DNA from: Sphagnum magellanicum
Taxonomy: Eukaryota > Streptophyta > Sphagnopsida > Sphagnales > Sphagnaceae
Direction of reading: 5' to 3'
Assembly: GCA_021904315.1 (NCBI GenBank)
Contig: CM038912.1
Location: 21,674,949-21,738,948 of the forward strand
Length of the DNA: 64,000 bases
Positions within the stretch are counted from its first letter, which is position 1, and every line of letters starts with the position of its first letter. Shown here in pieces: positions 1 through 64,000 of this stretch. The notes under the pieces were generated by a model, which worked only from the letters and a program-made list of their open reading frames with translations, was not told the DNA's origin and searched no databases. A program made the position numbers and the translations under genes.

Positions 1-7
1 GGAGCCA

Positions 8-1713
8 GTGCCCGATCCATTGAGGCAGATTGATCCTGAGGATGAGTTTGGAGATAATGGCTTGGAGAAGCTGATAGCGTCAGAAGGACCGCTAGGGATT
101 CTGCAACTAACATTTCAGGAGCAGGCTGACGATTTCATGAATGAAGAAATCACGGATGCGGATGATTATGCAAATTGGTTGAGATGGGTTGCTGATGCTG
201 AGCAAGGAAAACGAACCCGGCGTGAAAGCGCGCCTGATGTTGTTACGACACTTATGTTGCAGCAAACCTACCCAACGGACATTTCATTAATTCCGACGTT
301 GCTGCAAGTTATTCAGGTAAAAGATGACGACTTTAGTTGCACAACTACTGGGCTTTCAAGCTCAGCTTGTCATGACGAGATGGGTGATAGATGGAGGGAG
401 GTCTCTCAACGAATTAAGATAGATAGTGGCTTGGATGAGAAAGCACAGCGGCAACTTTGGGACGTTTTGGAACGATACCAGGATGTATTTGCTTGGAACA
501 AGGGTGAGTTGGGTTGCTATACTATGGGGGAACATGTTGTGGATATGCAAGGATTCCCACCTTGCAGAGCATCCCCTGGGAGACTGTCCTATTGGGAGGA
601 GGCCGAAGTGAAGAGGCAAATTGACGCTTTGGTGGAATTGGGCAAGATGAGGCCCAGCAGTTCCGAATATGCCTGTCGTGTTACTTTGCTAGCGAAGAAA
701 GATGGGAGCAGGTAATTCTGTGGAGACTACCGGCCACTCAATGCATAAACAAGGCGTGACGCATTCCCGATGCCGCTCGTGGAAGATGTCATTGATCAGC
801 TGGGGAATTCAACATGGTTTACTGCTCTAGATACAATCCGGGTTCTGGCAGATTCGAATGGTTCCAGAAGATGTGAAGAAGACTGCCTTGATCACCAAGA
901 CTGGATTGTATGACTGGACGGTCATGCCATTTGGATTGAAGAATGCAACAAGCACGTTCACCAGAACTATGTCTGAGGTCTTCAAGGATTTTTGGCAGCA
1001 AGTTTTTGAAGGTGTTTGTGGATGACCTCAACGTCCACAGCGGGAGTTGGATAGAGCACCTTCAGCATCTGGATATGGTTCTGTGTAAACTAAGGGAAGT
1101 AAATCTCAAGCTGAACCCGAAAAAGTGTTGCTTTGCTACGAAGAGTATTACATTCCTGGGCCATGTTGTTAGTGAGGATGGCACCAGACCAGATCCCGGT
1201 AAGGTCGAGGCAGTTCTACATTTTCCCCAGCCAAGGACGGTCACTAACATCAGATCGTTCTTAGGGCTGACAGGGTATTACCGAAAGTACATCAAAGGCT
1301 ATGTGCGACTGGCAGCTCCTCTGTTCGAGCTAACCAGAAAGGATGTTGATATTCTGTGGGATGCGGGTTGTCAACAAGCATTCCAAGCTTTAAGAACGGC
1401 GCTGGTCGAAGCACCCATCCTTATACGACCTGATTTCAAGAGGTCATTCTATTTGGATGTTGATTGGTCACCCAAGGGGGTCGGAGCCATTTTGTCCCAG
1501 AGAGAAGGGAAGTTGGAGAAGGTGGTAGCTTATGCCAGCAAGAGTCCGACAGAGGCACAAAAGAAGTTCCATCCCATGGAAGGAGAGTGCTATGCACTCA
1601 TATGGGGCGTCATGCATTTTAGGCAGTACCTGTATGAGAATCATTTTGTTTTGCGTACTGATCACAAGCCACTCGAGTGGTTGGCAATTGTATCTGACGC
1701 ACATGGAAGGTGA
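8..1713 (+). pseudogene. gypsy-1 reverse transcriptase-RNase H, broken
   Basis: The first open segment (to 715) holds the pre-RT linker and the start of RT, with a KKDGSR finger motif. It ends in a stop at 713-715, just before FCGDYRPLN, and a second in-frame stop follows a few codons on, where CAA to TAA is the simplest explanation. YDWTVMPFGLKNA is readable around 907-950. The frame then shifts, and 943-1713 gives the palm motif VFVDDL (the usual form is YxDD), the thumb and the connection, then RNase H with the DVDWSPKGVGA, ECYAL and RTDHKPLEWL motifs. At least two stops and one frameshift make it non-functional. The family assignment is secure. Confidence 0.9.
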
Positions 1714-1793
1714 GGCAGATGGATCGACATGCTACAGGACTTTAGTTTAAGATTCTGCACCGACCTGGTCTTAGACACACTAACGTTGATGCC

Positions 1794-3572
1794 TTGAGTA
1801 GAAACCCAACTGGACCAACCAAGGAAGATGATGATTTCTATGAGGAAATCCAAGACATTGGAGATGCTCAAGCTGGCACACACATCGAAGAAAGAAGGCT
1901 CCTTGTTGTCCGGAATGGCACAGAGATGGAATGGCTCGGGATTCGAAAAAAGGGTAGGGTGTCAGTACAACATCATGCCTGTTGTTTTGGGATCAACCAC
2001 TCTATGCGATTCAGTGACCACCATCTGTATATGATTGATATTATATCTGAAGATGATCAGCCTCAAGAGGTCATTATGTGTGAAGATGGAGAAAAAGGGA
2101 AGGATGAGACTGCGCAAAGCAGCACTGCTGGGATGACTCGGCTGAGGAAGAGACCTCACTACTATGACAAGCAACAGCAACTGGAGCTGGTCTTGGCAGC
2201 TCAACAGCTATTGGAGGCAGGTGAACATGATCTTCAATATGGAGATCTAGATGAAGAGGAGGAATGTGAAGCAGACTTGAGGAGCAGTGACATATGGGAA
2301 GATGTCAACTATCTGGAATTGTTGCAAGGGAGAACACTACCTGACACTATTGATCATCTGGAATCAAAAAAGGCGAGGAAGAGGATGCTCAATTATCATT
2401 GGCAAGGGCAGTCACTGTACTTCAAGGGACTGTTGGTACCAAAACCAGCAGATCGTATGGTACTGGTGGTTCTGATGCATGAAGACCTGGGGCATTTTGG
2501 AGAAGAATGGATTCTGGCTGAGGTGTGCAGAAGGTATTTCTGGCACAACCGAACTCAGGATGTCAAGGCTATAGTGAGGGTGTGCCAACATTGTCAAATG
2601 GTGAAAAGAACGGGGAGTATACGCTCTGAAGATGAAGAACTAAAGAGCATAGCCGTTTGTGACCTGTTCTACAGAGTGGCCATGGATACTACAGGGCCGC
2701 TGCCTGAGACCAAGTCAGGCAACAAATACATCCTAGTGGCCATTGACCACTATTCAAAATGGTGTGAAGCAAGAGCTGTGGCCGACCATGGAGCAAAGAC
2801 AGCAGCCAAGTTTTTGGAGGATGACCTAATCTACAGGTACGGGGTACCCAAGTTTGTGTTGACCGACAATGGAGGAGAATGGGCAGCAGAATTTGATGCC
2901 ATGTGTAAGGATTACGGGATTCATCATCAACACACGGCGTCTCAATGGCCACAATGCAATGGTATGGCTGAACGTTTGATCAAGACGATCAAACATGGTA
3001 TGATGGTATTGTCTATAGCACCCAATAATACCAATTGCTGGGATGAGCAATTGGCAAAGGTTATGTTTGGATACCGATGCGAAATCCAATCCAGCACAAA
3101 GTTCTCTCCTTTCATGATTCTAACTGGGCGTACACCACGCCTTAGGGCTGACAACTATTTGCACTCGTTGACTGTCGAGGTTGATGACACTGCAGATGTG
3201 GAAACTACTGCAGAGCAGTTCATGCAGAAGGTTAGATTGATCGCTAGCATCCATGAGAAGGTTCTGGCCAATGTGGGGCAGGCACAACAGAAGCAGAAAA
3301 CGACCTATGCAACTAGGAAGGGAAAACAGGCTTTTGAAGGCCTGGTTGTTGGTGAAACCATGGTCAAAATGAAGAAGCCCGGAAGGAAGAAGGCACTGGT
3401 TGCCAGCTGGGAAGGTCCCTACCTGTTCGTTGCGCATGCTGATGGGATAAGCAATCTGGATTTCGAAGAAGGGAGCCGCATATGCATTATTCGAGACGCT
3501 AATGGAAACCAATGGGAAAGACCACGGAAGGATCTTCAAGTGGATCACACTCCACAAAGCCTGCAGAGCTGA
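1794..3572 (+). CDS. gypsy-1 integrase (open 592-codon segment)
   Basis: This segment continues the RNase H-integrase linker (HTNVDALSRNP just upstream in the same frame), so 1794 is not a real start codon. It would be part of a pol polyprotein. Visible are the HHCC zinc finger (H-x3-H in HEDLGHFGEEW, then CQHC), the catalytic core with the first Asp in AMDTTGP, the second in LTDNGGEW and the Glu in GMAERLIKTIK (DD35E-like), and the C-terminal GPYLF region. No chromodomain is recognisable at the end, which closes with RPRKDLQV. The integrase frame is intact although the upstream RT is broken, so the copy is probably not very old. It is expected to insert element cDNA in the nucleus. Confidence 0.88.
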   Translation: MSRNPTGPTKEDDDFYEEIQDIGDAQAGTHIEERRLLVVRNGTEMEWLGIRKKGRVSVQHHACCFGINHSMRFSDHHLYMIDIISEDDQPQEVIMCEDGEKGKDETAQSSTAGMTRLRKRPHYYDKQQQLELVLAAQQLLEAGEHDLQYGDLDEEEECEADLRSSDIWEDVNYLELLQGRTLPDTIDHLESKKARKRMLNYHWQGQSLYFKGLLVPKPADRMVLVVLMHEDLGHFGEEWILAEVCRRYFWHNRTQDVKAIVRVCQHCQMVKRTGSIRSEDEELKSIAVCDLFYRVAMDTTGPLPETKSGNKYILVAIDHYSKWCEARAVADHGAKTAAKFLEDDLIYRYGVPKFVLTDNGGEWAAEFDAMCKDYGIHHQHTASQWPQCNGMAERLIKTIKHGMMVLSIAPNNTNCWDEQLAKVMFGYRCEIQSSTKFSPFMILTGRTPRLRADNYLHSLTVEVDDTADVETTAEQFMQKVRLIASIHEKVLANVGQAQQKQKTTYATRKGKQAFEGLVVGETMVKMKKPGRKKALVASWEGPYLFVAHADGISNLDFEEGSRICIIRDANGNQWERPRKDLQVDHTPQSLQS

Positions 3573-22951: not shown

Positions 22952-25900
22952 AAATCCACTTCTAGTACACAAAGCATTTTTCTAAACCTCTTTAACTTGT
23001 CTATACCTAAAGCCTTTGTGAAAATGTCAACAACTTGATCTTTAGTATTGACATGAATAAGGTTAATTTCTCTTATTACAACTTTTTCTCTAATAAAATG
23101 GTAGTGCATTCCAATGTGCTTTATCCTAGCATGATAGACTAGGTTGTTAACAAGTACTATGCTACTGATGTTATCACAATAAATGACAATAGAAGTATCC
23201 ACTAACTATCCCAAATCTAAGAGTAGTTTTTGTAACCAAAAGATTTCACATGCAACAATTGTTGCACCTCTATATTTTGCCTCCATGCTTGATAGTGCAA
23301 ATGTTAATTGTTTCTTACTATTCCAACTAACAGCACCATTTCCAAAAGAAAACATGAAACCATTAGTCGATCTTCTATCTGAAACATTACCAGCCCAATC
23401 AGCATCCGTGTATCCATGTACTTGTAACTAGCTCTTGGCTTCATAAAAAATTCCACACTGTAAAGTATGTTTTATGTACCTTAGTATGCACCTCACTGCA
23501 TCCAAATGTGGCTTTCGTAATGTTTGCATGAATTGACTTACCACTCCAACTGCATAACTCAAATCTGGCCTTGTGATGGTCATGTAAATCAAACTCCCCA
23601 TTATGCGTCTGTACATAGTGGTATCCTCCACAAGGTCTCTTTCATCTACACTTAGCTTCACATTTTGCTCCAATGGAATTGAAATGGGTTTGTAACCTGT
23701 CATCCCATATTCGGATAATTTGTTCAAGGCATATTGCTTTTGTAGTAACCATATCCCTTTAGGGGACTGGATTACGTTAATGTCGAAGAATTAATGCAAC
23801 TCTCCCAAATCTTTCATCTCAAACTTTTGCTTCAAAAGCTTCTTCAAATCAAAGATGTCTACATCACTATTTCTTTTGATAATCAAACCATCAACATAGA
23901 TGACTATGATTATAATCCCATGATCTATTTTTTCCACATATAGTGAAAAATTTGCATTGGATGTTTGAAATCCACTTGTGACAAGATATTGACCTATTTT
24001 GTCTAACCAAGCTTTAGGTGCTTGCTTCAAGCCGTACAAAGTTTTTCTCAACCTACAAACCAAACTAGGATGTATTTGGTCCACATAACCTGATGGTTGT
24101 TCCATGTACACTTCTTCCTGTAAATCTCCATGAAGAAAAACATTCTTTACATCCATTTGATGTAAAGACCATCCTTTTGCTGCTATCATAGCAATGATTG
24201 CTCTTATAGTGGTCATTTTGGCAACTGGACTATAGGTCTCCTCATAATCTATGCCATAAGTTTGGGCATAACCTTTGGCAACCAATCTTGCTTTGTATTT
24301 GCTCACAGATCCATTTGCATTGTGTTTGATTTTGAACACCCATTTGCACCCAATTACTTTCTTATCCTCTTATAAAGCCACCAATTCCCAAGTAGCATTA
24401 GCATCCAATGTCGCCATCTCTTCATCCATGGCATTATCCCATTTTGGGTTTCTAACCGCTTGTTCAAAACAAGTGGGTTTAACCTCATGTATAACTTGCA
24501 CCATGTATGCATAATGATGAGCTACAAAACCATCATACGTGAATCTTTGTACAGGGTATTTGACTTGTGTGGATTTTCGTACTCCATTGTTGTTGTCAGG
24601 TGTTTTCAAAGCTTTCTCGGCCATCCGAGCTCTAGGAGTAGTAACTGAAGGGATTCTTGATTCTTCATCCACACTCTTCTCTGAATCACTTAACTCATCA
24701 TCTACATTAAGATTTCTAGATGATGTTTGAAAACTACCATGTATAATGTTTGCAAATCTTAATTTTCCTTTCCATGGAATGCTATTGGACCCATTAATTG
24801 AAAACTTTAGTGGTCCATTAATTAATTGTGATTCTTGTTCCACATTTGATGAAACATCACCATTTCTAGCCTTTCCATCTTCTGTTATTTTTAGCGCTGA
24901 ATACTAGTTAACCATCTCATCAAACACAACATCTCTACTCACTTGTAACTTCCGAGTGGAAGGGTTGAAGCATCTATATCCTTTTTATTTTGAGGAATAT
25001 CCAATGAAGATACATTTCTCAACTTTTGGGTCTAGTTTTGATTTCTTTTTGTCAGGAACATGCACATATGCGATGCAACCAAACACTTTGAAGTGTGAGA
25101 CATCGAGTTTCTTACTTGTGAATTTTTCTTCAAGTGTCATGCCATGAACTACCACTATGGGTGTTTGATTCATGATATAGACTATAGTTGTTACCGCTTC
25201 AGCCCAAAAATAATTTGACAAATTTTTCTCATTCAACATGGCACGTGCTATTTTTATAATGTGCTTGTTTTTCGTTTTAGCACCTCCATTTTGCTATGGG
25301 GAATAACTACATGAGTATTGCCTTTGAATTCCATGCTCCTTCAAGTACTCATTGAATTCATTTGAAAAATACTCTCCCCTTCCATCGGACTTTAAACACT
25401 TGCTATTCACACCTTTCTCTTTTTCCACCATTACTTTGAAATTCAAAAAATGTTGAAACATTTCACCTTTGTGTTTCATGAAGTAGACCCACACCTTCCT
25501 TGTGTGGTCATCAATAAAACTCACATAATACTTGTATCCTCTAATGGAATTTTTGTGGTCCACACATCTGAGTGGACCATTTCCAAAGGTTTGGAATTTA
25601 CATGAGTTGTTTGAGCTGGGAATGGATGCCTAGCTTGCTTCCCTAATTGGCATGTTTCACAAACTTTTGACATCACCTCTTCTATTCCAAATTTGGGAAG
25701 ACTTCTAACAAGATTTTGTTTCCCCATTAGTTTAAGACATTGGAAATTAACATGGCCAACCCGCTTGTGCCAAATTCCAATGTCTCCAGCTCCTTTTCCA
25801 TGTGTGAATAACATGGAATTCACCTCAGGCATGTTCACATCCAAGGTGAACATTTGTCCATATCTTTCCCTTTTTGCAATCAATTTGCCTTGGTTCTTCA

Positions 25901-50696: not shown

Positions 50697-53600
50697 TATG
50701 TGGATTCTAGAGCTTCAAATCACATGACTAGTCATGAAGAATGGTTTAGAAACATAAAGGATTTGAAGATAGCAGGGTTTGTGGAAATTAGTGATGACAC
50801 TATACACCCCATCACACAAATTGGGAAGGTGCCATTGTCCATGCAAGATGGGCAAACAAAATACTTGAAAGATGTACATCATGTTCCAACCATAACAAAA
50901 AATTTGGTCTCTGTAGGCCAAATGGTGCAACAAGGTTTACAAGTGACATTCAACCCAAATGGATGTTTTGTGGAAGACATGAAGAACCAAGGCAAATTGA
51001 TTGCAAAAGGGGAAAGGAATGGACAAATGTTCACCTTGGATGTGACCATGCCTAAGGTGAATTCCATGTTATTCACAATGGAAAAAGAGCTAGAGACATT
51101 GGAATTTGGCACAAGCGGGTTGGCCATGTTAATCTCCAACATCTTAAACTGATGGAAAAATAGAATCTTGTTGGAGGTCTTCCCAAATTTGGAACAGAAA
51201 AGGTGATGTCAGAAGTTTATGAAACATGTCAATTGGGGAAGCAAACTAGGCATCCATTCCTAGCTCAAATAACTCATGTAAGTTCCAAACCTTTGGAAAT
51301 GATCCACTCAGATGTGTGGACTATGAAAACAAAATCCATTGGAGGATGTAAATATTACGTGAGTTTCATTGATGACCACACAAGGAAGGTGTGGGTCTAC
51401 TTCATGAAACACAAAGGTGAAGTGTTTCAACATTTTTTGAATTTCAAAACAATGGTGGAAAAGGAGAAAGGTGTGAACATCAAGTGCCTAAGGTCCGATG
51501 GAGGGGGAGAATATTTTCCAAATGAATTTAGTGAGTACTTGAAGGAGCATGGAATTCAAAGGAAGTACTCATGTAGTTATTTCCCACATCAAAATGGAAT
51601 TGTTGAAAGGAAAAACAAGCACATTACAGGATTAGCATGTGCCATGTTGAATGAAAAGAATTTGCCAAATTACTTTTGGGCTAAAGTAGTAGCAACTATA
51701 GTCTATATCATGAATCAAACACCCACAGTGGTAGTTCATGGCATGACACCTGAAGAAAAATTCACAAGCAAGAAACTCGATGTCTCACACTTTAGAGTGT
51801 TTGGTTACATTACATACGTGGATTTTCCTAACAAGAAAAAATCAAAACTAAACCCAAAAGTTAATAAGTGTATCTTCATTGGATATTCCTTAGAACAAAA
51901 AGGATATAGATGTTTCAATCCCTCCACTTGAAAATTGCAAGTGAGTAGAGATGTTGTGTTTGATGAGATGATTAATTGGTACTCACCACTAAAGGTAACA
52001 AAAGATGGAGAGGCTAAAAATGGTGATGTTTCATCAAATGTGGAAGAAGAATCACAAATAATTAATGAACCACAAGAGTTTTCAATTAGTGGGTCCAATA
52101 GCATTCCATGGAAAGGAATATTAAGATCTTCAAACATTGTGCATGGTAATTTTCAAACATCATCTAGAAATCTTCATGTAGATGATGAGTCAAGTGATTC
52201 AAGGAGGAGTGTGGGTGAAGAATCAAAATTTCCTTCAATTATTACTCTTGGAGCTCGGATGGCCAAGAAAGCATTGAAAACACTTGACAACAACAATGGA
52301 ATACGAAGATCCACACAAGTCAAGTACCTTGTATAAAGCCACACATGTGATGGCTTTGTAGCTCATCATTATACATACATGGTGAAAGTTATACATGAGG
52401 TTAAACCCATTTGTTTTGAACAAGCGGTTGGAAACCTTAAATGAAATAATGCCATGGATGAAAACATGGCAGCTTTGGATGCTAATGCTACTTGGGAATT
52501 GGTAGCTTTACCAAAGGATAAAAAATCAATTGGTTGTAAATGGGTGTACAAAGTCAAACACAATGCAAATGGATCTGTGAGTAGATACAAAGCAAGATTG
52601 GTTGCCAAAGGTTATGCCCAAACTTATGGCATAGATTATGAGGAAACCTATAGTCCAATCGCTAAAATGATAACTATAAGAGTAATCATTGCTATGGCAG
52701 CAACAAAAGGATGGTCTTTACATCAAATGGATGTAAATAATGTTTTTTTTCATGGAATTTACATGAAAAAGTGTACATGGAACAACCACCACTTGTTTGG
52801 TTATGTGGACCAAACACACCCTAATTTGGTTTATAGGTTGAAGAAAGCTTTGTACGGCTTGAAGCAAACACCTAGAGGTTGGTAAGACAAGATAGGTCGG
52901 TGTCTTGTCACAAGTGGATTTCAAACATCAAACACCTAATGCAAATTTTTCACTATATGTGAAAAAAACAAATCATGGGATTGTAGTAATAGTCATCTAT
53001 GTTGATGACTTGATTATCATAGGAGATAGTGATGCAGACATCTTTGATTTCAAGAAGCTTTTGAAGCAAAAGTTTGAAATTAAGGATTTCGAAAAGTTAC
53101 GTTACTTCTTCAACATTGAGGTAATCCAGTCCCCTAATGGGATATGGTTACAACAAAGGCAATATGCCTTCAACAAATTATTCGAATATGGGATGACGGG
53201 TTGCAAACCCATTTGAATTCCATTGGAACAAAATGTGAAGTTAAGTGCAAATGAAGGAGACCTTGTGGAGGATACCACTATGTACATATGCATAGTGGGG
53301 AGTTTGATTTACATGCCCATCACAAGGCCAAATTTGAGTTATGCAATTGGAGTGGTAAGTCAATTCATGCAAACACCACGAAAGCCACATTTGGATGCAG
53401 TGAGGCACATACTGACGTACATAAAACATATTTTGCAATGTGGAATGTTTTATGAAACCAAAAGCCATTTACAAGTACATGGATACATGAATGCTGATTG
53501 GGCTGGCAATGTTTCAGATAGAAGATCGACTAATGGCTTCATGTTTTCTTTTGGAAATGGTGCCATTAGTTGGAGTAGTAAGAAACAACCAATAGTTGCA

Positions 53601-54273: not shown

Positions 54274-56980
54274 TTAGTATCTATAGGAGCGCTTGGCACC
54301 TATATTATTTGTTTGCCTCAAAAACAAGAAACAATTTTTCACACCAATATCAAGTATTCACAACCATCTATTTTTAGTAAATATTGGCACAACTTTAAGT
54401 GGTGGAATAAACAACTTTGGGTATATGCTGTAAATTAATTACCTTCCATTTATAGGTGAATATGAAGAAGAGGATGTTCAATTCCATAAAATGTATGAAG
54501 GGATTTGCTTACTTGCAAGATGTGTAGCTACAACACGAATACTAAATTGTTCATGAAACTATATGGGTTGTAAGGAAAGAAGTTAGTTGCATGAAATTGT
54601 GGGTAAAATCATCCTTCTCCCCAAGCTTTTCTACTTCCTAAGCATGCATATTGTTGTGAGATAAACTCAATTATTTATTATACTTTGTAGGTGGAGGAGC
54701 TAATGCAAACTTTACAAAATGTGCACATGGAGGTAACACAAATGGAATGGCTCAATGAATCAACCCTATCAAGCTTGCTTGCTCCTTCCTTCATAGTCAA
54801 TTTTTAAGCATTCCTAATTCCTTTAGAAGTGAGAAACAAGGGTCCAATATTGCATGGTGAATCTAGAAACAAATGTTAAATAACATGTGTGCAACAATTT
54901 CTACAATTACAAGGGCAACAAAAGGACTACATGTAAGGAATTCATCCACTGTGGGGATTGGAGAGAGTTCCCAATTTTTGTCATTAGCTAAAGTAACCAT
55001 AAGAAATGTGTTTGGCATTTGCTCAGTGCTAACATCATGTGCTCGAACTATTAATATAATTTCTAGTTTAATTTTGGATGGTCACAAGATAAGGCAAGAG
55101 AGTTTAATAGAAGAAGACTACACCGAAAAAGAAATTGAGGGTGAGTTTGCTCTAATTTCTATCTAGCTTGCTTACATGTAGTAAGCAAGTCTAGATGGTT
55201 TGCCCTTCTTACTAACTTCCAATTTATAAGTTGAAGTGCTAGATGAAATCATATGATTGGAGAATTATTCTCATGAAATGTGAATATCTAGGAAGTTAAC
55301 ACTTTCCACTTGGTAAGCACAAGTTAGTTTTTGTTTGCGTGTGACAATGTAAAGTGATGGCTTCAAAATTGTAGGAAAAAAGAATTGCCCAAGGCTATTC
55401 AAAAGTTTTCTAATGTTTGGATGGTCAACACTTTCTACTTGGTAAAGTACCTTATGGATTTATTTTGCACATTACAATCATGTATTTCTATTTGATTCCT
55501 TTAGTAATTCATCGTGGTGGAACATAAAAGTAGCCTAGTAAATGTAGTGTTGTTACACCCATGTCTAAATTGATTAACTTAGATGAGATGTCTTTGGCAC
55601 AGATGCAAGGTTGCACTGAAGAACGGTGAAAGCACATTAAGGTGGAACAAAAACAACACATTGTGATAATCTATTTTTAATCCATCATGAAATAAAATAC
55701 ACTAGGAAGGTATGATAAAAGTAGGCAAAAAAAAAAGATACTTTGAATCAAATGGGCCATGTGGCAAGGTGTTATAAGATATCTTTCCATAAGGATTTAA
55801 GCATCTCTAACTTATTTTATAATAATTTTATACTTGAAATATGAACATTTAAATCATTACTTTCAACAAATGAAAGACTTCCTTCATAAGCTTCATATTT
55901 GGTATACATTTCAAAATTTAATCATCAAATATTTGAACAAATTGTCTTATTTAATATCAATTTGCCACAATATTATATTACCATTAAGTCATAAAGGACA
56001 TTATATCAAGGTGTATTGATTCCATTTAATTTATCCTTGATTGGACACGTGTTTTTGTATAACTTTTTAAAAGTCCATAACAAATTGAATACCAATGATT
56101 TGACCATGAAATTTTAACATAGTGTTTTGATGTATGAATTCATTTTTGACATGAATCCATTTCATCATTTACACATATCAATTGGAATAAACTACCATTG
56201 AAAATTTGAAAATTGTGAAAAATGGATTCTTAACATCTAAAGTGTAACACCTTAGTGTGTTTTCACCCAAAGGTTGTTGAAAGTTACAATAGAATGTTGA
56301 AAAGGAAACCTATGGTTGTGTTATTAGTGGTAATTGCCTCAAATAATCTAATTGCAATTAGGGGGCGAAAAGACCTTTTTTATTCACTAAAGAAATCTAA
56401 CAAATTGCTAGAGAATAAGGGCCTTGGGCAAAAATTGTAGTTTGTAGACAGACTAGACCATAAACTTTCTACAAGGCAAAAAGGAGGCCATTAGCTTCAA
56501 TCAATGTTTATTGCTTCTACATTCAAATAAGCTTAGTCAAGTCAATATCATTTTGACCCTATCAATATTTCATTACTACTTAAAGCCTTTGTGCTAATTT
56601 GTCACACAATTAAGCATCACAGATATAGTCAAGTTTGGATATTTTGACTACTTTGTTTAAACATGCAATTTAAGTAAATTTGAAAGTCCTTAATTTCCTC
56701 TTAAATCTAGGGAGAAGTAAGGAACATGGACTTCTTAGATTTTTGGTTGTTTAAGCATATTATGCATGTGCCAAATTTAAACAAGTTGTGTTAGCTCTAA
56801 CATTTAGCAATTTCCCTATAGGCTTAACAATTTATTTCTTCACTAATGGAGACATTTCCAAAAAGTATAATTCCAAAAAAAATTTCACTAGCAAAGACTT
56901 TCAAAGAGTGAAATCAAATTCATGTAGGGACACATTTACATACAATGCACAAAAGGAGGCTGAAATGAAATTCTCATGTA
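54274..56980. other. Intergenic; right part probably the 3' LTR of gypsy-3
   Basis: No gene is supported. Open frames at 54873-55166 and 55834-56019 have no recognisable domain. Because the gypsy-3 polypurine tract ends at 56981, its 3' LTR should extend leftward from 56980 (minus strand TACATGAG, a decayed TG start). Its far end cannot be set without a second copy. Confidence 0.45.
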
Positions 56981-56996
56981 TCCCCCCAAACCTAAG
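56981..56996 (-). other. gypsy-3 polypurine tract
   Basis: On the minus strand CTTAGGTTTGGGGGGA directly follows the PHD-like coding end and precedes the expected LTR. The G-run fits a plus-strand primer. Confidence 0.65.
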
Positions 56997-57024: not shown

Positions 57025-57170
57025 GAATCAAGGTACTACAAGAGAACATGATGCTGATGGGAACTTAAGTGAGCTTTGGCTTGAGGCAAAATAAATGGTA
57101 TCCACCACTATAATTATCGCAAAGCAGCATCTAATCGGCATCGTTTGTCCTTTGATGTACCTGACATGGA
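57025..57170 (-). pseudogene. PHD-like zinc finger at the end of gypsy-3 pol
   Basis: In frame with the integrase C-terminus (..CAPCHLPNLDPTIIT) the sequence reads PCQVHQRTNDAD, a stop, MLLCDNYSGGYHLFCLKPKL, a stop, VPISI and FSCST. The spacing of Cys/His positions (CxxC, then ~12 residues, CxxC, then GYHxxC, LxPxL, VP, a W position and CxxC) and the residues MLLCD, GYHLFC and LxPxL match a PHD finger (C4HC3). Three or more zinc ligands are now lost (C to H, C to Y, last C to L), as is the Trp before the final pair. PHD fingers usually read histone H3 tails; here a role in insertion-site or chromatin targeting of the integrase is inferred. Confidence 0.75.
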
Positions 57171-57829
57171 TAGTGTAGTAAAGGAATCCAAGTTGACGTG
57201 ATGATGGTAGGATCCAAGTTCGGTAGGTGGCAAGGCGCACAATTTTTGGAATGATCTTAAATTGTGCGTCCGTCAACTCCTTGCAACTCCAACACACCTA
57301 AAGGCCTAATCACTTTAATCCTCAAAATAATGTGACCAAAAGAAGTGTCCAGAGTATCATCAAGTTGCCGTTGGAGATACACAAAATCACTAACATCAAA
57401 TTGTTTCACCTTAGGTTTGTAACTGCCACTTCATGTGTGTGCATATCGTAAGGTGTTTCGATGTTATGCAATGAACAAGTTTTCCATGGCCATGGGCATA
57501 ACTCTCCTAAATAGAACATCCCTCTTTGCGATGACCCTAGCATAAATGGCTAGGGAGTCCAAGTCCACAACCTGGTCCATTTGAATAGCAATGAAAGAAG
57601 GTGGAATAGGATGTTTCCAAAAAGTAGAAAGTAAGGAAAGAAATGAGACAAAGAGGTGTGTTTGGACATCCTATAACCCATGGCGATGTCAGGTAAGGCT
57701 AGGTCCTAATCCTCTTTGTTCCTAGTGAAGCAAATCTTTCGAAGTCCTTCTTACATGTCTGAACCATCCTCTCTGAAGGCCATCAGCTTAGGGATGATCC
57801 CTTGAAGTTCGATGATAGTCAATGAGAGC
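57171..57829 (-). pseudogene. gypsy-3 integrase, distal core and C-terminal part
   Basis: This continues the core from the other side of the solo LTR. It reads ALIDYHRTSRDHP, a stop, ADGL, then the Glu-containing segment in another frame (one base lost near 57776), KICFTRNKED, LALPDIAMGYRMSKHTSLSH, PYFLLFGKHPIPPSF and RRVMPMAMENL. A second part reads YKPKVKQFDVSDFVYLQRQL and VLELQGVDGRTI, typical of the GPY/F-like C-terminal region without a chromodomain. Confidence 0.85.
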
Positions 57830-57834
57830 ATGGT

Positions 57835-58817
57835 TGTCGCAACCTTAGCTTTGGGCTCGCGACCAAGGCAAAGGGAATTGCAAGGGTGCGGGCCAAAGGA
57901 AAGCCCGGGAGTTAAGCCAAGAGGATGCCCCGGAGTTAAGGCAAGAGGAAGCCCGGGAGTCACATCACATACTCCTAGGAGTGTGAGAAAGTGTTAGAAA
58001 GTGTGAGGGAGTGAACCCTCACACTCCCAAGGCAACTCCCACTTTGGGAGATGAGTCCCGGTGGACTCCCGAAGCTTCAGAGAGCAATTGCAGGGGTCAA
58101 ACCTCAATAAATTATGGCGTTATTTATATCATTGAAAAGCTCTTGAAGCGTAGATATCTAAAATGAGCTCGCATTGCTCATTTGGACATCTGAAACACAA
58201 GTTATGGCCAAAAGAAGGGTCGGGAGTCGAATTCCCGGGAGTCTGCCAGTTTTGACTCCCAACGACTAAAAGTCGTGAATCGACCCAAAATACTTAGTTG
58301 CAGAGAACGTGCGACATACCGTTGGAAAGGTCTCGACGAGACCTACAACTTTGCTTTAGATTGCATTGCGATCCGAGGTCTGCTCGCAAAGTTATGGGGC
58401 TCCAAAGTCCCGGGAGTCCCATTTGGCGCGATTTCGGGACTCCCACTCGGGAGTCCCGGGAAAAATAGCCATTTGGATGTAGCCTCCGTGGAGAGCTGCA
58501 GAGTATACTATAAGGGGGAAGGTGGTGGCTTCCCCCAAGTCCGGGCCGTGGTGAGTCTTGTGTGTCCGTGTTGCCGGTGGCTCGTCCTAGCACCAAGGGT
58601 GTTCCAACTTTGCACTAACCACTTTGTGTGGGTTATGTGTAGGCCCGTGTGAGTGACTAAAGCTTGTCAACTCTTCCTAGTCCCATCCCGGAGCTCCAAC
58701 CCGCCCCTCTACCCCTCAAAGGGTTGTGAACTAGGGAGCGTGCTCCAACTCCTCCTTATTTCGTTGCTTTATACTTGGGCTCACATTTGAGTCCCTTGAG
58801 GAGTTAGGGGTGCGTCA
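57835..58817 (+). repeat. LTR family A, solo LTR with perfect target duplication
   Basis: This 983-bp LTR, TGTCGCAACC...GGGGTGCGTCA, is flanked on both sides by ATGGT (57830-57834 and 58818-58822). No internal retroelement sequence remains, so it arose by LTR-LTR recombination. It carries a 10-bp perfect stem with a 4-base loop (58435-58458), a TATA-like actataaggggga (58506-58518), and many CpGs. Removing it plus one ATGGT joins the two halves of the gypsy-3 integrase. Orientation is inferred from the TATA-like box. Confidence 0.95.
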
Positions 58818-58822
58818 ATGGT

Positions 58823-59330
58823 CAAGTAGGTTTTGGAATTATCCTGTGAATTTTGATCCTTGATCAATAAGGCACTTAGCATAAACCCAAACCTACTTAA
58901 GACCTGTTGTAAGAAAGCCTGGCTGGTGCTATGTGATGACTTCTCTGGCAATCCAACAAGCTTGACCCATTTTGAAAACAGTTCAATCATAATCATGATG
59001 TAAACATTACCCCTAAAGGTTTGTGGTAACTCTCCAGCTAAATCACATGACCAGTGATAGAACATGCCTTGAATAAGGAGTGGAGAAAGCGTGAGCTGTC
59101 AAGAGGAGAAGGAAATTTTCACCCTATCACATTGTTCACACCTAGCGATGACGTTTCGAACTTGAACATACATACCTCTCCAATGGTAATGAGGAGCGAG
59201 AAGACTATAAGTACGCTTAATTCCAAAATGTCCAAGCTCTGAATGTACTTTTTGAATAAAACCAAGTTATTCATGTGGTGGAGGAACCACTCTGTCACCT
59301 TGTGGTAAGCATTGGACGAGGTGATTGTCC
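58823..59330 (-). pseudogene. gypsy-3 integrase, zinc finger and proximal core
   Basis: It reads VHSELGHFGIKRTYSLLAPH, then HYHWRGMYVQV, ARCEQCDRVK (HHCC finger complete) and a stop. 58823-59065 has the core: WSCDLAGELPQTFRGNVYIM (first Asp), FSKWVKLVGLPEKSSHSTSQ, and after a frameshift LIDQGSKFTG, a stop and FQNLLDH (second Asp). The solo LTR cuts in right after LLDH. Confidence 0.88.
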
Positions 59331-59960
59331 TTCCATGAATAGCATTTGGACCGTTGTTATATGCGATCCCAATGACTTGATGTAACTTGGGGAGAGTATT
59401 CCCCATGCTGAAAAAACCTTAGTGTGTCCAAGTCCTCCCATATATCCACAATGGGATGCTCAACCAGGTTACATTGCAATAGTGCAAAATAACTAGATGC
59501 ATAAGATACATGTATTGCAGGAATCTGGTCAAAGTTTTGCCTAGCTTCTAAAAAATCTTCAAAGGTAATGAGGGGTCTTTGCGATGTGGTATCCATGTTT
59601 TGATGTGTAATACTAGTTCGGTGAATAACCTTAAACTCATACTCTTAAAGTATAAATGCCCAACGAGCTAATTTACTAATAAGCTTGTCGTTGGTCATCA
59701 ACCATTTCATAAGCTGGTGGTCGGTATATAAAATGAACTTGGTGCCATAAAGATAGGGCCTAAAATGTATAACGGCCCATACAACAATAAAACACTTCCC
59801 CTCATATGAAGAGTAATTGCTCTCAGCCTTGTCGTTGCTTCAAGATGCATAGGCGATAACATATTCTTTGCTTTCTTCATCAAGTTGGCCAAGAATAACA
59901 CCAATACCAAAAGCATTCTAGTAAATGTGTAAAATGAAAACCTTACCGAAATCAAGTTTT
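59331..59960 (-). pseudogene. gypsy-3 RNase H and linker
   Basis: Readable parts are GIGVILGQLDEESKEYVIAY, ESNYSSYEGKC (Glu region), WAVIHFRPYLYGTKFILYTD (HFRxYL..YTDH motif) and TSITHQNMDTTSQRPLITFE, followed by the linker DQIPAIHVSYASSYFALLQC. Frames change once or twice. Confidence 0.85.
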
Positions 59961-60870
59961 CTTAGAATGGGGAATTCTGAAAGCTTTTCCTTGAATGTAT
60001 CAAAAGCTTCCTGACCTCTTCACTCCATGTCCAAGTAACATCCCTCTTTAACAATGCATAGAGAAGATGAATAATAGCATTAAAGTCTTGGATATAAATG
60101 CTATAATAATTACATAGTCTGATGAAGCTCCTTAAAGTGTGAAGATCAGTAGGATTGGGCATCTCCAAAATGGCTACTACTTTGGCCCAATGAGCCATAT
60201 ATTATTTGGCAAAATTTTGTGTCCAAAGTAGACTACTAAGGCAATAGCAAACTCACATTTTTTAGGATGAATCTTCATATTGACTTCATGGAACCTCTTG
60301 AATAATTCCTTAAGATGAGCCAAGTGCTGTAGGAATCCCTTGTTATGCACTAGGACGTCATCTATGTAACACTTCAGGAAATCTACCCCTTTGAAAACCT
60401 AGTTCGTGACTCGTTGAAAAAAGATAGGTGCATTCTTCAATCCAAAAGGTATCACAAACCATTCCCACAACTTGTTGTTTCCATGGAATGTCATTTTCTT
60501 GTGATCCTTCGTAACGAGCACAATTTGGTTAAAGCCTTCCCTTAAATCCACAATTACGAAAATGTTTGAATCTCTAATGCTATCAAACAATTCTTCAAGG
60601 ATGGGCATGGGGTACATGTCTTAAGGTGTAACCAAGTTCAAAGGCCTGTAATCCCCGCACATCCTTTTTTTAATCCATAATCCAACTAAATCTTTCTTTG
60701 CTAGCATTATTGTAACGGCTACAAAATCAAAACTTGATGGCTGAATGAGACTAGCCTCATGGAGCTCTTTGCATCTTTCATCTACCAATTCCCACTAATG
60801 CTTGCTCAACCTATGCCTCCTCTGATAGATGGGTGCCTCATATGTAAGGTCTATAGATAACTGCATGGTT
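59961..60870 (-). pseudogene. gypsy-3 reverse transcriptase
   Basis: It begins with DLGRCKTMQLSIDLTYEAPI (~60860-60915) and continues with KKRMCGDYRPLNLVTP, then FVIVDLREGFNQIVLVTKDH, WFVIPFGLKNAPIFFQRV and the active-site box KCYIDDVLVHNKG (YIDDV at 60354-60368, intact). HEVNMKIHPKKCEF and LHTLRSFIRLCNYYSIYIQD (thumb/connection) follow. There are several stops. Confidence 0.9.
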
Positions 60871-61019: not shown

Positions 61020-62280
61020 GTTTGAAAACCTAGTGATTGGGTTCTCCACTATCCAACTGCATAGATTCATAGAAGGTTATAATTATTTCTCCAAAAGTTG
61101 ATGTACTCCCAAGTGTATTAGAAACAACTTGAGTCAAATTACATGGTACTTCCTCCCCCACATCACTAAAAGTGAAATGTTGAATGTTGAAGATAGGCAA
61201 ATGTACTTGGTCGAGGTGCCATGTATTCGCATCGACAGAATTGCAAGCTAATTGAATCAGTGCTAATGTTGAGTACATTTGAAAGAGTACATAGGTTACA
61301 ACCAACCATGTAAGGGAGTTCAAGTCCATGCCTCTCCCCAGTAGAACATTACATTCCAATCTAGTCACCTTGGTGTGACTAATAGTGTTAATTTGGAACC
61401 CCATAGCCCTTTTTCTTTCTTTTGGGCTTGGTTCATCCCAAGTGGCTGAAGCATGATGATACACCAAGCCTAGTCCATTTCCTTGAAAGGCGTGTGTTCC
61501 TAGGAAGGAAACAAAGGTGGGCCAAGCACCTCTTGGTTATCCTATTATGTTCGCAAGAAACCAAGGAGGTTTTTCTTGCCTTGTAACTGGTTGGTAAGAG
61601 CTCTGATCATCTAATATATGAGAAACCTGCAAGTTAGGGTTTTTGATGGTGTATTTCAGAGACAACTATAAAACTAAAAATGCTGCAAGGTTCGTCCACT
61701 AATTGCGTAGCTGGTGTACATAGGAACCACATTGTGTCGTATCGAATAAGAACGACTCTCCAAGGTAATGCTTAATTAACGTGTAGTGTTCTTAAACTTT
61801 CTCCTTCTTATCAAGATGAGAAGGGGTGTTTTCAATTATATAACCAAGAGTAGGAGAAATGGATTGAGCCCATGTGATCAATTGTACCATGTCTATGAAG
61901 AAGTTGGATCTTGTGTCATTCCAACCTTCTCCAAATCCAATTGCTAAAAATCCTTAACACTCCCAACTTGAAATGATGAGCTCCACGGGGCCAAGTAATT
62001 CCATATGTTTCTTTTGAATTAGTTATACATCAGAGGGCAAGAAAGTGAAACTAGCCTTCCATGCGATGGTTACAAACTATTGTGGAAATCTAGCTATGAA
62101 TTCCATCATTTTTAATGTCGTCACTTGCCTTATAATAGGATCAATGTCTATGTCAAAATACCTCCAAACCACCATCCCTGACTGTAGTAGGGCTTCAAAA
62201 GTTGTACCAATACCACCAAAGAGCTTTAGTAATGTAATCCCCTCCTTAAATGGCATCCCAGTGATTAGTTGATGAAATAT
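61020..62280 (-). pseudogene. C5 cytosine DNA methyltransferase domain inside gypsy-3 pol
   Basis: One continuous frame from 62280 to about 61030, broken only by seven stops, holds the C5-methyltransferase motifs in linear order. They are I TLLKLFGGIGTTFEALLQSG (62206-62226 core, SAM binding), II YFDIDIDP, and IV GPVELIISSWEC with the catalytic Cys at 61957-61959 and a stop in the next codon. Then come VI GYIIENTP (Glu at 61831-61833), VIII QCGSYVHQLRN (61700-61733), a target-recognition stretch, IX PSPKERKRAMGF (61393-61425) and X NVLLGRGMDLNS (61318-61352). The LLGR form of motif X and the VIII region resemble DNMT3-like enzymes; EC replaces the usual PC. It lies between retropepsin and RT. 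It would transfer methyl from SAM to cytosine; this copy is inactive. Confidence 0.9.
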
Positions 62281-62985
62281 TGGTTTAATCGGTTTGCCAT
62301 GGCCCTCCATGTTTTCAAAATTAAACGGAGCTTTGACTAAAGGCTCGTGGGCTACTTTGAACCTTCGTAAAACCTCTGGTCCATGTTGAATGTTCGTAGG
62401 AACCACCCTTAAGCTTTTAGTAACTTGGGTGTAAATTGTCTCATTTTCATCTCCTTCTATCCACTTGTGGTTAGCTTGTTGGATGTAGGAAATGGTGTGT
62501 GCTTCCTTAAACATACAATGGTGAGCCATAGGACTATGGTTCCCATGTAAATCAAGGGGTATGTATCCCAGGTGGTGGCCATCAGTCTCCCAATCCACTC
62601 AGTAGTATGCATGTTCGAACCAGTTGTTAATTATGAAACATGGTGAAAACAAGGCCTCATGCCCAATGAACACATTGTAACTGGTGGCATTGGTGACTAA
62701 ACATCTTACTTGTAGGCAAAGCTCCTGATCTATACCTTCATTGAAGTTAAATGCAATCAAATCTGAGTTCTTCCAAAGTACCTCCTCTACGCTCCCACTA
62801 GTGATGTGAATTTGTCACATAAATTTTCGTAGTTTAGAATTGAGCATGCCTATCTTCTTGGCAAATTGAACTCCAAAAATCACTAGTTGGGCACCTATAT
62901 CAAGAAGTACCACTCTAGGTGTATGTCCTCCCACCTGGATTGTTGACTAAGTATTGTCAATAACAACAACTCCGGTGGCGATGGA
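62281..62985 (-). pseudogene. gypsy-3 retropepsin and linker to methyltransferase
   Basis: TIQVGGHTPRVVLLDIGAQL contains the active-site Asp (codon 62899-62901) in DIGA, from D-T-G-A by one change. VIFGVQFAKKIGML and a central region ending TSYNVFIGHEALF (flap/C-terminal half) follow. 62598 downward reads DGHHLGYIPLDLHGNHSPMA and RRFKVAHEPLVKAPFNF up to the methyltransferase. Few lesions are visible apart from stops. Confidence 0.85.
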
Positions 62986-64000
62986 AGTTCTCTCATTAAA
63001 CACCACCTTCAAAAATGAGTGAAACTTTGTGGAAAAAATGACTATCCACAACACCTTTGTTGAATAACAAATCCACAAGTGAAGTGTTTTTAGTTCCCTT
63101 TTAATATGTGAATATAAAATTAGAGGTAGGAAAGCCCACTAATTTAGCCATGTTAGAACTAGTGACCAAATCACGAACACCATCTACAACATGTGAACCA
63201 ATTGAGTGTCTTTCCAAGGTGTTGGATGGGACCCTTGTAGCATGTGGATCAAGGATCGGTAAAGGACCTGATGCAATGTTCAAGGTATCCTTTAGTACTA
63301 CAATTATGTCCTTGGTGCTTAACTTCAAATCTTGAAAACTAAACAACAATGTACTCACAAGCTTTTGTGCCACCTCACACATTTGAAGTTAGCACTCCAT
63401 AAGCTAATCAGTGGAAAATCGTGTGTTTTCCTAATGTACATGTACTTCTAGAACACAAGAATTTGATGCCCTAGCAGCTTGCGGTGTAGTAGTCTCCTCC
63501 CCCTTTGCCAACAAGATGCATTCTTCTTCCGTGTTGAAAGGACGAAAAGATTGTGGCATGACTACTTGAGCTCCTCTAGCCCTGGTAATAGGACTTGAAC
63601 CTGATGCGAGTCCATTAATCTAAATTACCTACTTAGTGGCAAAAACTCTAGGTGCCACACTAGCTTTTTGTGCCACAAACTAGGAAGGGCAAAAATAAGT
63701 GGCAAATTTTGGTGTGAGACTAAAATTGTGTGCACTAAAAAGAACATACTCCCTAACCATGGCATCGTGCGAGAGGCCATAGAACGACCTAAAAGGTCCC
63801 TCCCGTGATCTTGAACCCTATACAGGTTAAGCATGATTAGCTAGTTGGGAATACTTGCCTTTTAGATTAGTAAGTTGGGCCCTTAATGAATCGAGTTCAT
63901 TTTGCAGAGTTTGAACTTGAGCGGCATGGGCTTGAAGCACCTCCCTCTTGTCAGCATTGTGCTCCTTCTTAACATTCTCACTGGAATTACCCTTAGTGGG
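62986..64000 (-). pseudogene. gypsy-3 gag-like region (continues beyond window)
   Basis: From the right edge it reads NVKKEHNADKREVLQAHAAQ and NELDSLRAQLTNLKGKYSQL (coiled coil, 63840-63960), then FRSFYGLSHDAMVREYVLFS, ITRARGAQVVMPQSFRPFN and VRDLVTSSNMAKLVGFPTSN (63101-63382 frame). No CCHC knuckle was seen in this part. The assignment as gag or gag-pol linker rests on position upstream of protease. Confidence 0.65.

What the first reader, a model, noticed from the sequence alone, without database searches (positions are those of the whole stretch)
61020..62280. A Ty3/gypsy retrotransposon that encodes its own C5 cytosine DNA methyltransferase
Between the retropepsin and the RT of gypsy-3 lies a full-length methyltransferase fold with motifs I, II, IV (catalytic Cys in WEC), VI (ENT), VIII, IX and X in the right order and spacing. 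It shares one frame over about 400 codons, interrupted only by stops. Motif X (LLGR) and the motif VIII context look DNMT3-like. From memory, methyltransferase-bearing retrotransposons were reported in charophyte algae and dinoflagellates (de Mendoza and colleagues, Nature Communications 2018); I do not know of a described example in a vascular plant. Such an element could methylate its own cDNA or new insertions, perhaps to modulate silencing or to avoid host damage.
Basis: partly seen in the sequence, partly recalled or inferred. Interest (0 to 1): 0.96.

Follow-up and report, generated by a model that had tools for sequence, protein, structure and literature searches.

The report
Moss jumping gene carrying DNA methyltransferase
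A large family of copy-and-paste jumping genes in a peat moss carries its own DNA-methylating enzyme, apparently kept by natural selection, and the ends of its copies suggest that it inserts into the genome from DNA circles; methylase-carrying elements of this kind had been described from algae and stated to be absent from land plants.

The parts
61273..62298 (-). C5-cytosine methyltransferase domain (DNMT3-like), complete in length, 7 in-frame stops
   Evidence: 1,026 of 1,026 bases map to residues 946-1287 of open copy L009; motifs and stops
61945..61968 (-). motif IV (GWECQGFS in the family; SWEC-stop-GFL here): catalytic Cys preceded by Glu, not Pro
61816..61833 (-). motif VI (ENTPS)
61687..61719 (-). 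motif VIII, AHRLRNWWTNL in the family (VHQLRN-stop-WTNL here)
61318..61419 (-). motifs IX-X (ERERAMGF ... LLGRGMDLN in the family)
62632..62976 (-). retropepsin (LLDTGAQP in most copies, LLDIGAQL here)
   Evidence: (weak Pfam hit, E 0.0043, under the cut-off)
62977..64000 (-). 3' part of gag and gag-PR linker; the copy runs on past the window's end
   Evidence: match extends to 64289 in contig-extended coordinates
60037..60695 (-). reverse transcriptase
   Evidence: (RVT_1 5.6e-8 on one piece)
59639..60027 (-). RNase H
   Evidence: (RT_RNaseH 5e-18 on one piece)
59114..59284 (-). integrase zinc-binding H2C2
57791..59059 (-). integrase core (rve), split by a ~980-bp insertion at 57835-58817
   Evidence: (rve 2.3e-6 on one piece, under the cut-off)
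57060..57166 (-). PHD finger remnant (107 of 135 bases map)
56930..56981 (-). remnant of repeat B (U3 part of the LTR)

Best explanation
The window holds a dead copy of a family of PHD-tailed Ty3/gypsy retrotransposons in a peat moss whose polyprotein (gag-PR-MTase-RT-RH-INT-PHD) includes a DNMT3-like C5-methyltransferase kept by selection. How it works, step by step. (1) Transcription starts in repeat A about 32 nt after a TATA box; the first 12 nt of the RNA pair with the primer site just after A and self-prime reverse transcription, as in Tf1 (inferred from sequence; Tf1 recalled). (2) Plus-strand synthesis starts at the G-rich tract before B, giving linear cDNA with LTR = B-GC-A (inferred). 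(3) The cDNA ends are joined, giving circles with one or two LTRs (end joins are seen in integrated copies; the circles themselves are inferred). (4) The DDE integrase opens the circle at the palindrome CACGACA-GC-TGTCATG inside U3 and inserts it with a 4-bp duplication (the result is seen). (5) The MTase, made in the same polyprotein and so probably packaged with RT and integrase, methylates this cDNA or circle or the new insertion, so that the element looks like host DNA and escapes damage, or is born silent; the PHD finger probably reads histone H3 at the target (inferred, not shown).
Against: No expression, methylation or enzyme data. Motif IV reads ECQ, not PCQ, so catalysis is not certain. 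The Klebsormidium relative showed no activity in yeast, judged inconclusive by its authors. Circles were not seen; form (i) copies (A-int-B) could also come from recombination between B1 and B2 after insertion. Some join changes in old copies may be later mutations; in 12 of the 17 rows that count, A2 is only 71-75% like the family-A reference. The MTase and RT intervals of pN/pS overlap. Window pieces alone do not hit Pfam. One of 17 target duplications has a mismatch (L056/57).
Confidence: 0.62

Rival explanations
1. The MTase is a non-catalytic partner (like DNMT3L): it binds DNA or host DNMTs and stabilises the intasome or cDNA, but transfers no methyl group.
For: The usual Pro before the catalytic Cys is Glu in family A and in most relatives that could be read (of 142 proteins a regex gave ECQ in 81, PCQ in 20, other readings in 7, no match in 34).
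Against: Catalytic Cys, motif VI Glu, motif I and motif VIII stay: GWECQ in 13 of 14 copies and EN in 14 of 14; family B and other relatives keep PCQ, so ECQ lies inside a clade with canonical enzymes.
Confidence: 0.2
2. The MTase acts on RNA (genomic RNA or a host tRNA) rather than DNA, as DNMT2 does.
For: It could act in the particle before cDNA exists; de Mendoza et al. raise RNA methylation for the LINE-borne enzyme.
Against: Sequence and fold are nearest DNMT3, not DNMT2 (DNMT2 1.6e-4 against 8.5e-19 for DNMT3A).
Confidence: 0.1
3. The split direct repeats reflect a DIRS/PAT-type tyrosine recombinase mechanism, not circle opening by a DDE integrase.
For: The repeat order A1-int-B1-A2-B2 is the PAT order (recalled); de Mendoza et al. 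call the Klebsormidium repeats the same as in a DIRS element.
Against: rve and H2C2 integrase present and no recombinase among the Pfam hits of the polyprotein; 4-bp duplications, whereas the DIRS1 integration model leaves none.
Confidence: 0.04
4. Integration is from linear cDNA with the integrase cutting at internal sites; A2|B2 arises from cDNA concatemers or recombination, not from circles.
For: Form (i) needs no circle; one locus has B-GC-A-B-GC-A-B in tandem.
Against: Form (ii) needs joined LTR ends; join variants with lost bases and a microhomology look like end joining. Concatemers stay possible.
Confidence: 0.25
5. The MTase is a host-gene fragment caught by chance in this one copy.
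For: None.
Against: At least 110 places in this genome and relatives in other genera.
Confidence: 0.005

Closest known systems
KnitGypsy-Dnmt3 of Klebsormidium nitens (de Mendoza et al. 2018, PMC5890265; abstract and sections 9, 10, 11 read)
   Same: Intronless Dnmt3 in the Pol ORF of a Gypsy element, purifying selection, DIRS-like repeat structure with Gypsy domains
   Different: Land-plant host; PHD finger (the term does not occur in that paper's main text; its figures were not seen); ends, 4-bp TSD, self-primer and circle model worked out here. Sequences not compared, as none was at hand
SymbioDIRS-Dnmt3 and SymbioLINE-Dnmt of dinoflagellates (same paper)
   Same: Retroelement-borne DNMT, SymbioDIRS-Dnmt3 active on CG in yeast
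   Different: DIRS or LINE elements, independent captures according to the authors
DIRS/PAT elements (PMC3266345, passages read)
   Same: Split or complementary repeats, circular intermediate; DIRS1 pol also holds a methyltransferase domain
   Different: Tyrosine recombinase and no TSD there; DDE integrase, TG..CA and 4-bp TSD here
Tf1-type self-primed Ty3 elements (recalled)
   Same: RNA 5' end complementary to the primer site
   Different: Tf1 integrates at its LTR ends and has no MTase or PHD (recalled)
Plant DRM and animal DNMT3
   Same: DNMT3-type catalytic fold
   Different: DRM is permuted, this is not; ECQ where DNMT3A shows PCN; separate clade on a long branch

Membership tests
Ty3/gypsy LTR retrotransposon | gag, PR, RT, RNase H, DDE integrase in the order PR-RT-RH-INT | tested here: met
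   on an open copy; MTase inserted between PR and RT
Ty3/gypsy LTR retrotransposon | insertion bounded by two LTRs | tested here: not met
   0 of 17 copies with both ends read show LTR-int-LTR; A-int-B or A-int-B-GC-A-B instead
Ty3/gypsy LTR retrotransposon | short target duplication and TG..CA ends | tested here: met
   exact 4 bp in 16 of 17, one mismatch in 1
KnitGypsy-Dnmt3 kind | Dnmt3 in the Pol ORF of a Gypsy element | tested here: met
KnitGypsy-Dnmt3 kind | DIRS-like split repeats | tested here: met
   for form (ii); form (i) lacks them
KnitGypsy-Dnmt3 kind | common descent with the Klebsormidium element | not tested
   no K. nitens sequence among the listed named hits (one search lists 120 of 365)
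DIRS/PAT | tyrosine recombinase | tested here: not met
   none among the Pfam hits (E<=1) of the 2,379-aa frame; rve integrase instead
DIRS/PAT | no target duplication | tested here: not met
   4-bp duplications
Chromovirus | C-terminal chromodomain | tested here: not met
   PHD instead in the Pfam scans of one family-A and one family-B copy
DNMT3 catalytic domain | motifs I-X in unpermuted order, DNMT3 fold | tested here: met
DNMT3 catalytic domain | Pro-Cys in motif IV | tested here: not met
   GWECQ in 13 of 14 family-A copies; family B has GWPCQ
DNMT3 catalytic domain | methyl transfer to DNA | not testable with these tools
   needs an assay
DRM | permuted motif order | tested here: not met
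   motif I precedes IV, VI, VIII-X

The most novel reading that the evidence does not exclude
A whole lineage of green-plant Ty3-like elements has moved its integrase attachment site from the LTR ends to a palindrome inside U3, so that it must integrate from end-joined cDNA circles; the 'split direct repeats' are simply two-LTR circles cut inside the LTR. Its polyprotein carries a DNMT3 with a Glu-Cys active loop plus a histone reader and methylates the circle before or at insertion. This would be the first DDE-integrase retroelement that uses circles as the normal substrate rather than as dead ends (as far as I recall; my one search on split direct repeats with Gypsy and integrase, listed five papers of which I saw only titles and the starts of abstracts).
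Probability: 0.45. Interest if true: 0.88.

Novelty: new variant of a known kind. Interest (0 to 1): 0.77.

Why it matters
It brings retrotransposon-borne C5 DNA methyltransferases into land plants (moss and, by a protein hit, a liverwort). Morozov et al. 2019 (PMC6338049, passages read) stated that they are absent there and explained the absence by the decline of large DNA viruses. Many copies with readable ends in a moss genome make the question 'why would a parasite carry the silencing enzyme?' testable. The ends offer a concrete explanation of split direct repeats in an element with a DDE integrase and a testable route of integration from circles. The Glu-Cys motif IV is an unusual active-site variant in an apparently constrained enzyme clade.

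Tried and rejected
Chance host insertion: rejected. Vascular-plant host: rejected. Direct repeats in the window: none of 30 bp or more; the copy is truncated. Host DNMT3 as donor: the candidate L023 and a second gene (P0027) turned out to be permuted DRM genes, and C3:13555280 reads like a MET1-type gene by its motifs (not tested further); no unpermuted plant DNMT3 was at hand, so donor and sister group stay open. IMG/VR scan with the MTase profile: 12 loci at 27-47% identity over parts of the domain; flanks not examined, not used. tRNA genes in the window: none. Substitution spectrum: C-to-T singletons per site CG 0.47, CHG 0.56, CHH 0.20 against A/T transitions 0.06, consistent with methylated copies, but about half of the singletons come from the old window copy and there was no MTase-less control, so it says nothing about who methylates.

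Literature: the listings showed no paper on a land-plant case, in open-licence PMC papers only. Opened: PMC5890265 (abstract, sections 9-11, word passages), PMC6338049, PMC12344493, PMC9998398 and PMC3266345 (passages). [quoted passage not shown] its supplement was not seen and could hold further hosts. PMC9998398 found no DNMT3 in green-algal MMETSP transcriptomes, which does not fit easily with the Monoraphidium hit. PMC6338049 counts green algae and charophytes among hosts of methylase-bearing Ty3/DIRS elements, so algal occurrence is not new.

Dropped rows: TSD not scorable for L011, L012, L024, L027, L028, L054/55, L060/61, L066/67, L070, L071/72 and the window copy. P0022 (truncated) left out of tree and Mantel; P0001 out of Mantel. 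The motif IV regex takes the first match and misread at least P0005 (ACR; one search shows PCQ). Of 32 places with the exact junction 20 were fetched; 17 of these 20 show B1-GC-A2-B2, L081 has a truncated B2, L091 none, L089 is another family. Listings were capped: 120 of 365, 120 of 2,181. Genome-wide counts for the A|B, PPT|B and A|primer junctions, for family B and for RT did not complete, so the share of MTase-less relatives is unknown.

Full report
OBSERVATION. The minus strand of the window carries a decayed Ty3/gypsy copy. Its methyltransferase is complete in length (61273-62298; 1,026 of 1,026 bases map to an open copy), in one frame with 7 stops in the domain, between protease (62632-62976) and RT (60037-60695). 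The copy has lost both ends and its integrase is split by about 980 bp. Taken alone, three pieces of its MTase find nothing in Pfam and the one piece tried nothing in PDB; the proof comes from sister copies.

HOST. The genome is 439 Mb in 31 contigs. A host protein with the permuted DRM motif order is deposited as CY35_17G070500 of Sphagnum magellanicum on a contig of 19,854,503 bases, the exact length of contig C17 here. The host is therefore a peat moss, a land plant but not a vascular one.

FAMILY. A DNA_methylase search of the genome gives 124 matches. The family-A MTase gives 111 matches at 110 places, 10 of the 110 without a stop over a full-length match; only 110 of 1,138 candidates were scored. 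The longest open frame is 2,379 codons and reads gag - retropepsin (728-824) - MTase (946-1287) - RT (1487-1641) - RNase H - integrase (H2C2, rve) - PHD finger (2330-2374). The other copies read are interrupted. Eight young copies are 96.6-98.7% identical to one another's reference over the ORF, and in L010 A1 and A2 differ by about 1%, which suggests recent activity. A second family, B, has the same order; A and B share 42% identity in the MTase, 51% in RT and 60% in INT.

SELECTION. Over 8 young copies pN/pS is 0.147 for the MTase (bootstrap 0.083-0.233), 0.141 for the PHD finger, 0.183 INT, 0.249 gag, 0.352 RT (0.183-0.698), 0.463 RNase H and 0.584 (0.261-1.502) for the linker after the MTase. 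The MTase is at least as constrained as RT; the two intervals overlap. With six older copies added (including the window's) the MTase ratio rises to 0.307, as expected for dead copies.

DISTRIBUTION. Twenty-two polyproteins match the MTase; one bears an organism name, Monoraphidium neglectum, a chlorophyte. A second search (365 hits, 120 listed) adds a liverwort, Calypogeia fissa (63% identity, retropepsin followed by MTase in the same protein), Closterium, a zygnematophyte (by reading: gag knuckle, retropepsin, part of the MTase in one protein), and Sphagnum compactum. Twenty of 20 polyproteins tested (P0002-P0021) have the order RT-MTase-INT-PHD, against PR-MTase-RT-INT-PHD in the moss; the liverwort and Closterium proteins show PR-MTase. 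The MTase therefore sits at two positions. Distances of MTase and RT correlate over 22 elements (Mantel r 0.71, 0 of 999 permutations as high; RT against INT 0.74), as expected if they travelled together. On a tree of 32 proteins the 25 retroelement MTases form one clade (99/99) apart from six DRM and a partial human DNMT3A. No unpermuted plant DNMT3 and no Klebsormidium enzyme could be included.

ENDS. Repeat A (311 bp) lies at the 5' end. The 3' end is either B (178 bp) alone (form i) or B-GC-A-B (form ii). In 15 family-A copies with both ends read the insertion starts TGTCATG and ends CACGACA or a close variant, flanked by exact 4-bp duplications in 14 and by one with a single mismatch; two family-B copies agree, although their A and B differ in sequence. 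In all, 16 of 17 are exact, and none of the 17 has LTR-internal-LTR. A G-rich tract directly precedes B. TCTAGAAAAACT directly follows A in 13 of 16 copies read, with one change in the other three; its reverse complement AGTTTTTCTAGA lies in A, 32 nt after TATAAAA. Family B has the same plan with an unrelated 13-mer, 30 nt after a TATA-like TATAC. These marks define a normal self-primed LTR of B-GC-A, about 490 bp, and place the integration boundary inside its U3, at the near-palindrome CACGACA-GC-TGTCATG. This word occurs 32 times in the genome, its reversed control 0 times.

MODEL. Form (ii) equals a two-LTR circle opened at that palindrome; form (i) a one-LTR circle (or a later B1-B2 recombination). 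The A2|B2 join is then a join of LTR ends: exact in 17 of 25 copies of family A and near relatives, with bases lost or gained in 8; in family B one is exact and one lost 43 nt at a 6-nt microhomology; one locus holds B-GC-A-B-GC-A-B in tandem. This looks like end joining of linear cDNA. That the circle is the substrate is inferred; concatemers are not excluded. What the MTase does is inferred from its place in Pol, its fold and its constraint: most likely it methylates the cDNA circle or the fresh insertion. The PHD finger (closest in PDB to KMT2D, KMT2C, KDM5D and WSTF) probably binds histone H3.

COMPARISON. de Mendoza et al. 2018 (PMC5890265; abstract, sections 9, 10 and 11 and word passages read) describe KnitGypsy-Dnmt3 of a charophyte with DIRS-like repeats; the moss family looks like it and is probably kin, but no sequence was compared. 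The DIRS1 integration model leaves no target duplication (PMC3266345, passages). Morozov et al. 2019 (PMC6338049, passages) state that methylase-bearing transposons are absent from land plants. The listings of my ten searches showed no printed land-plant case, in open-licence papers only.

VERDICT. Real, multi-copy, apparently constrained; a new variant of a known kind. The end structure that points to circle opening is the most novel part.

Noticed in passing
family A copies; P0001-P0022 and P0144-P0263: Glu replaces the usual Pro before the catalytic Cys of motif IV in most readable members of this MTase clade, while other members keep PCQ.
   Followed up: partly
L070 (C4:3307700-3310200): B-GC-A-B-GC-A-B in tandem, with the same shortened A|B join twice.
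   Followed up: partly
L089 (C17:7315723-7316483): The exact end-palindrome in a stretch that matches neither family A nor most of family B: a possible third family.
   Followed up: no
window 57835-58817: About 980 bp of foreign sequence inserted in the integrase of the window copy.
   Followed up: no
P0002-P0021: MTase lies between RT and integrase instead of between protease and RT: the domain changed place or was taken up twice.
   Followed up: partly
window 2-3572: Another Ty3/gypsy element on the plus strand with RT, RNase H and integrase domains.
   Followed up: no
window 23794-24339 (-) and 51203-51928 (+): Copia-type fragments (RVT_2; integrase core with SH3-like domain).
   Followed up: no
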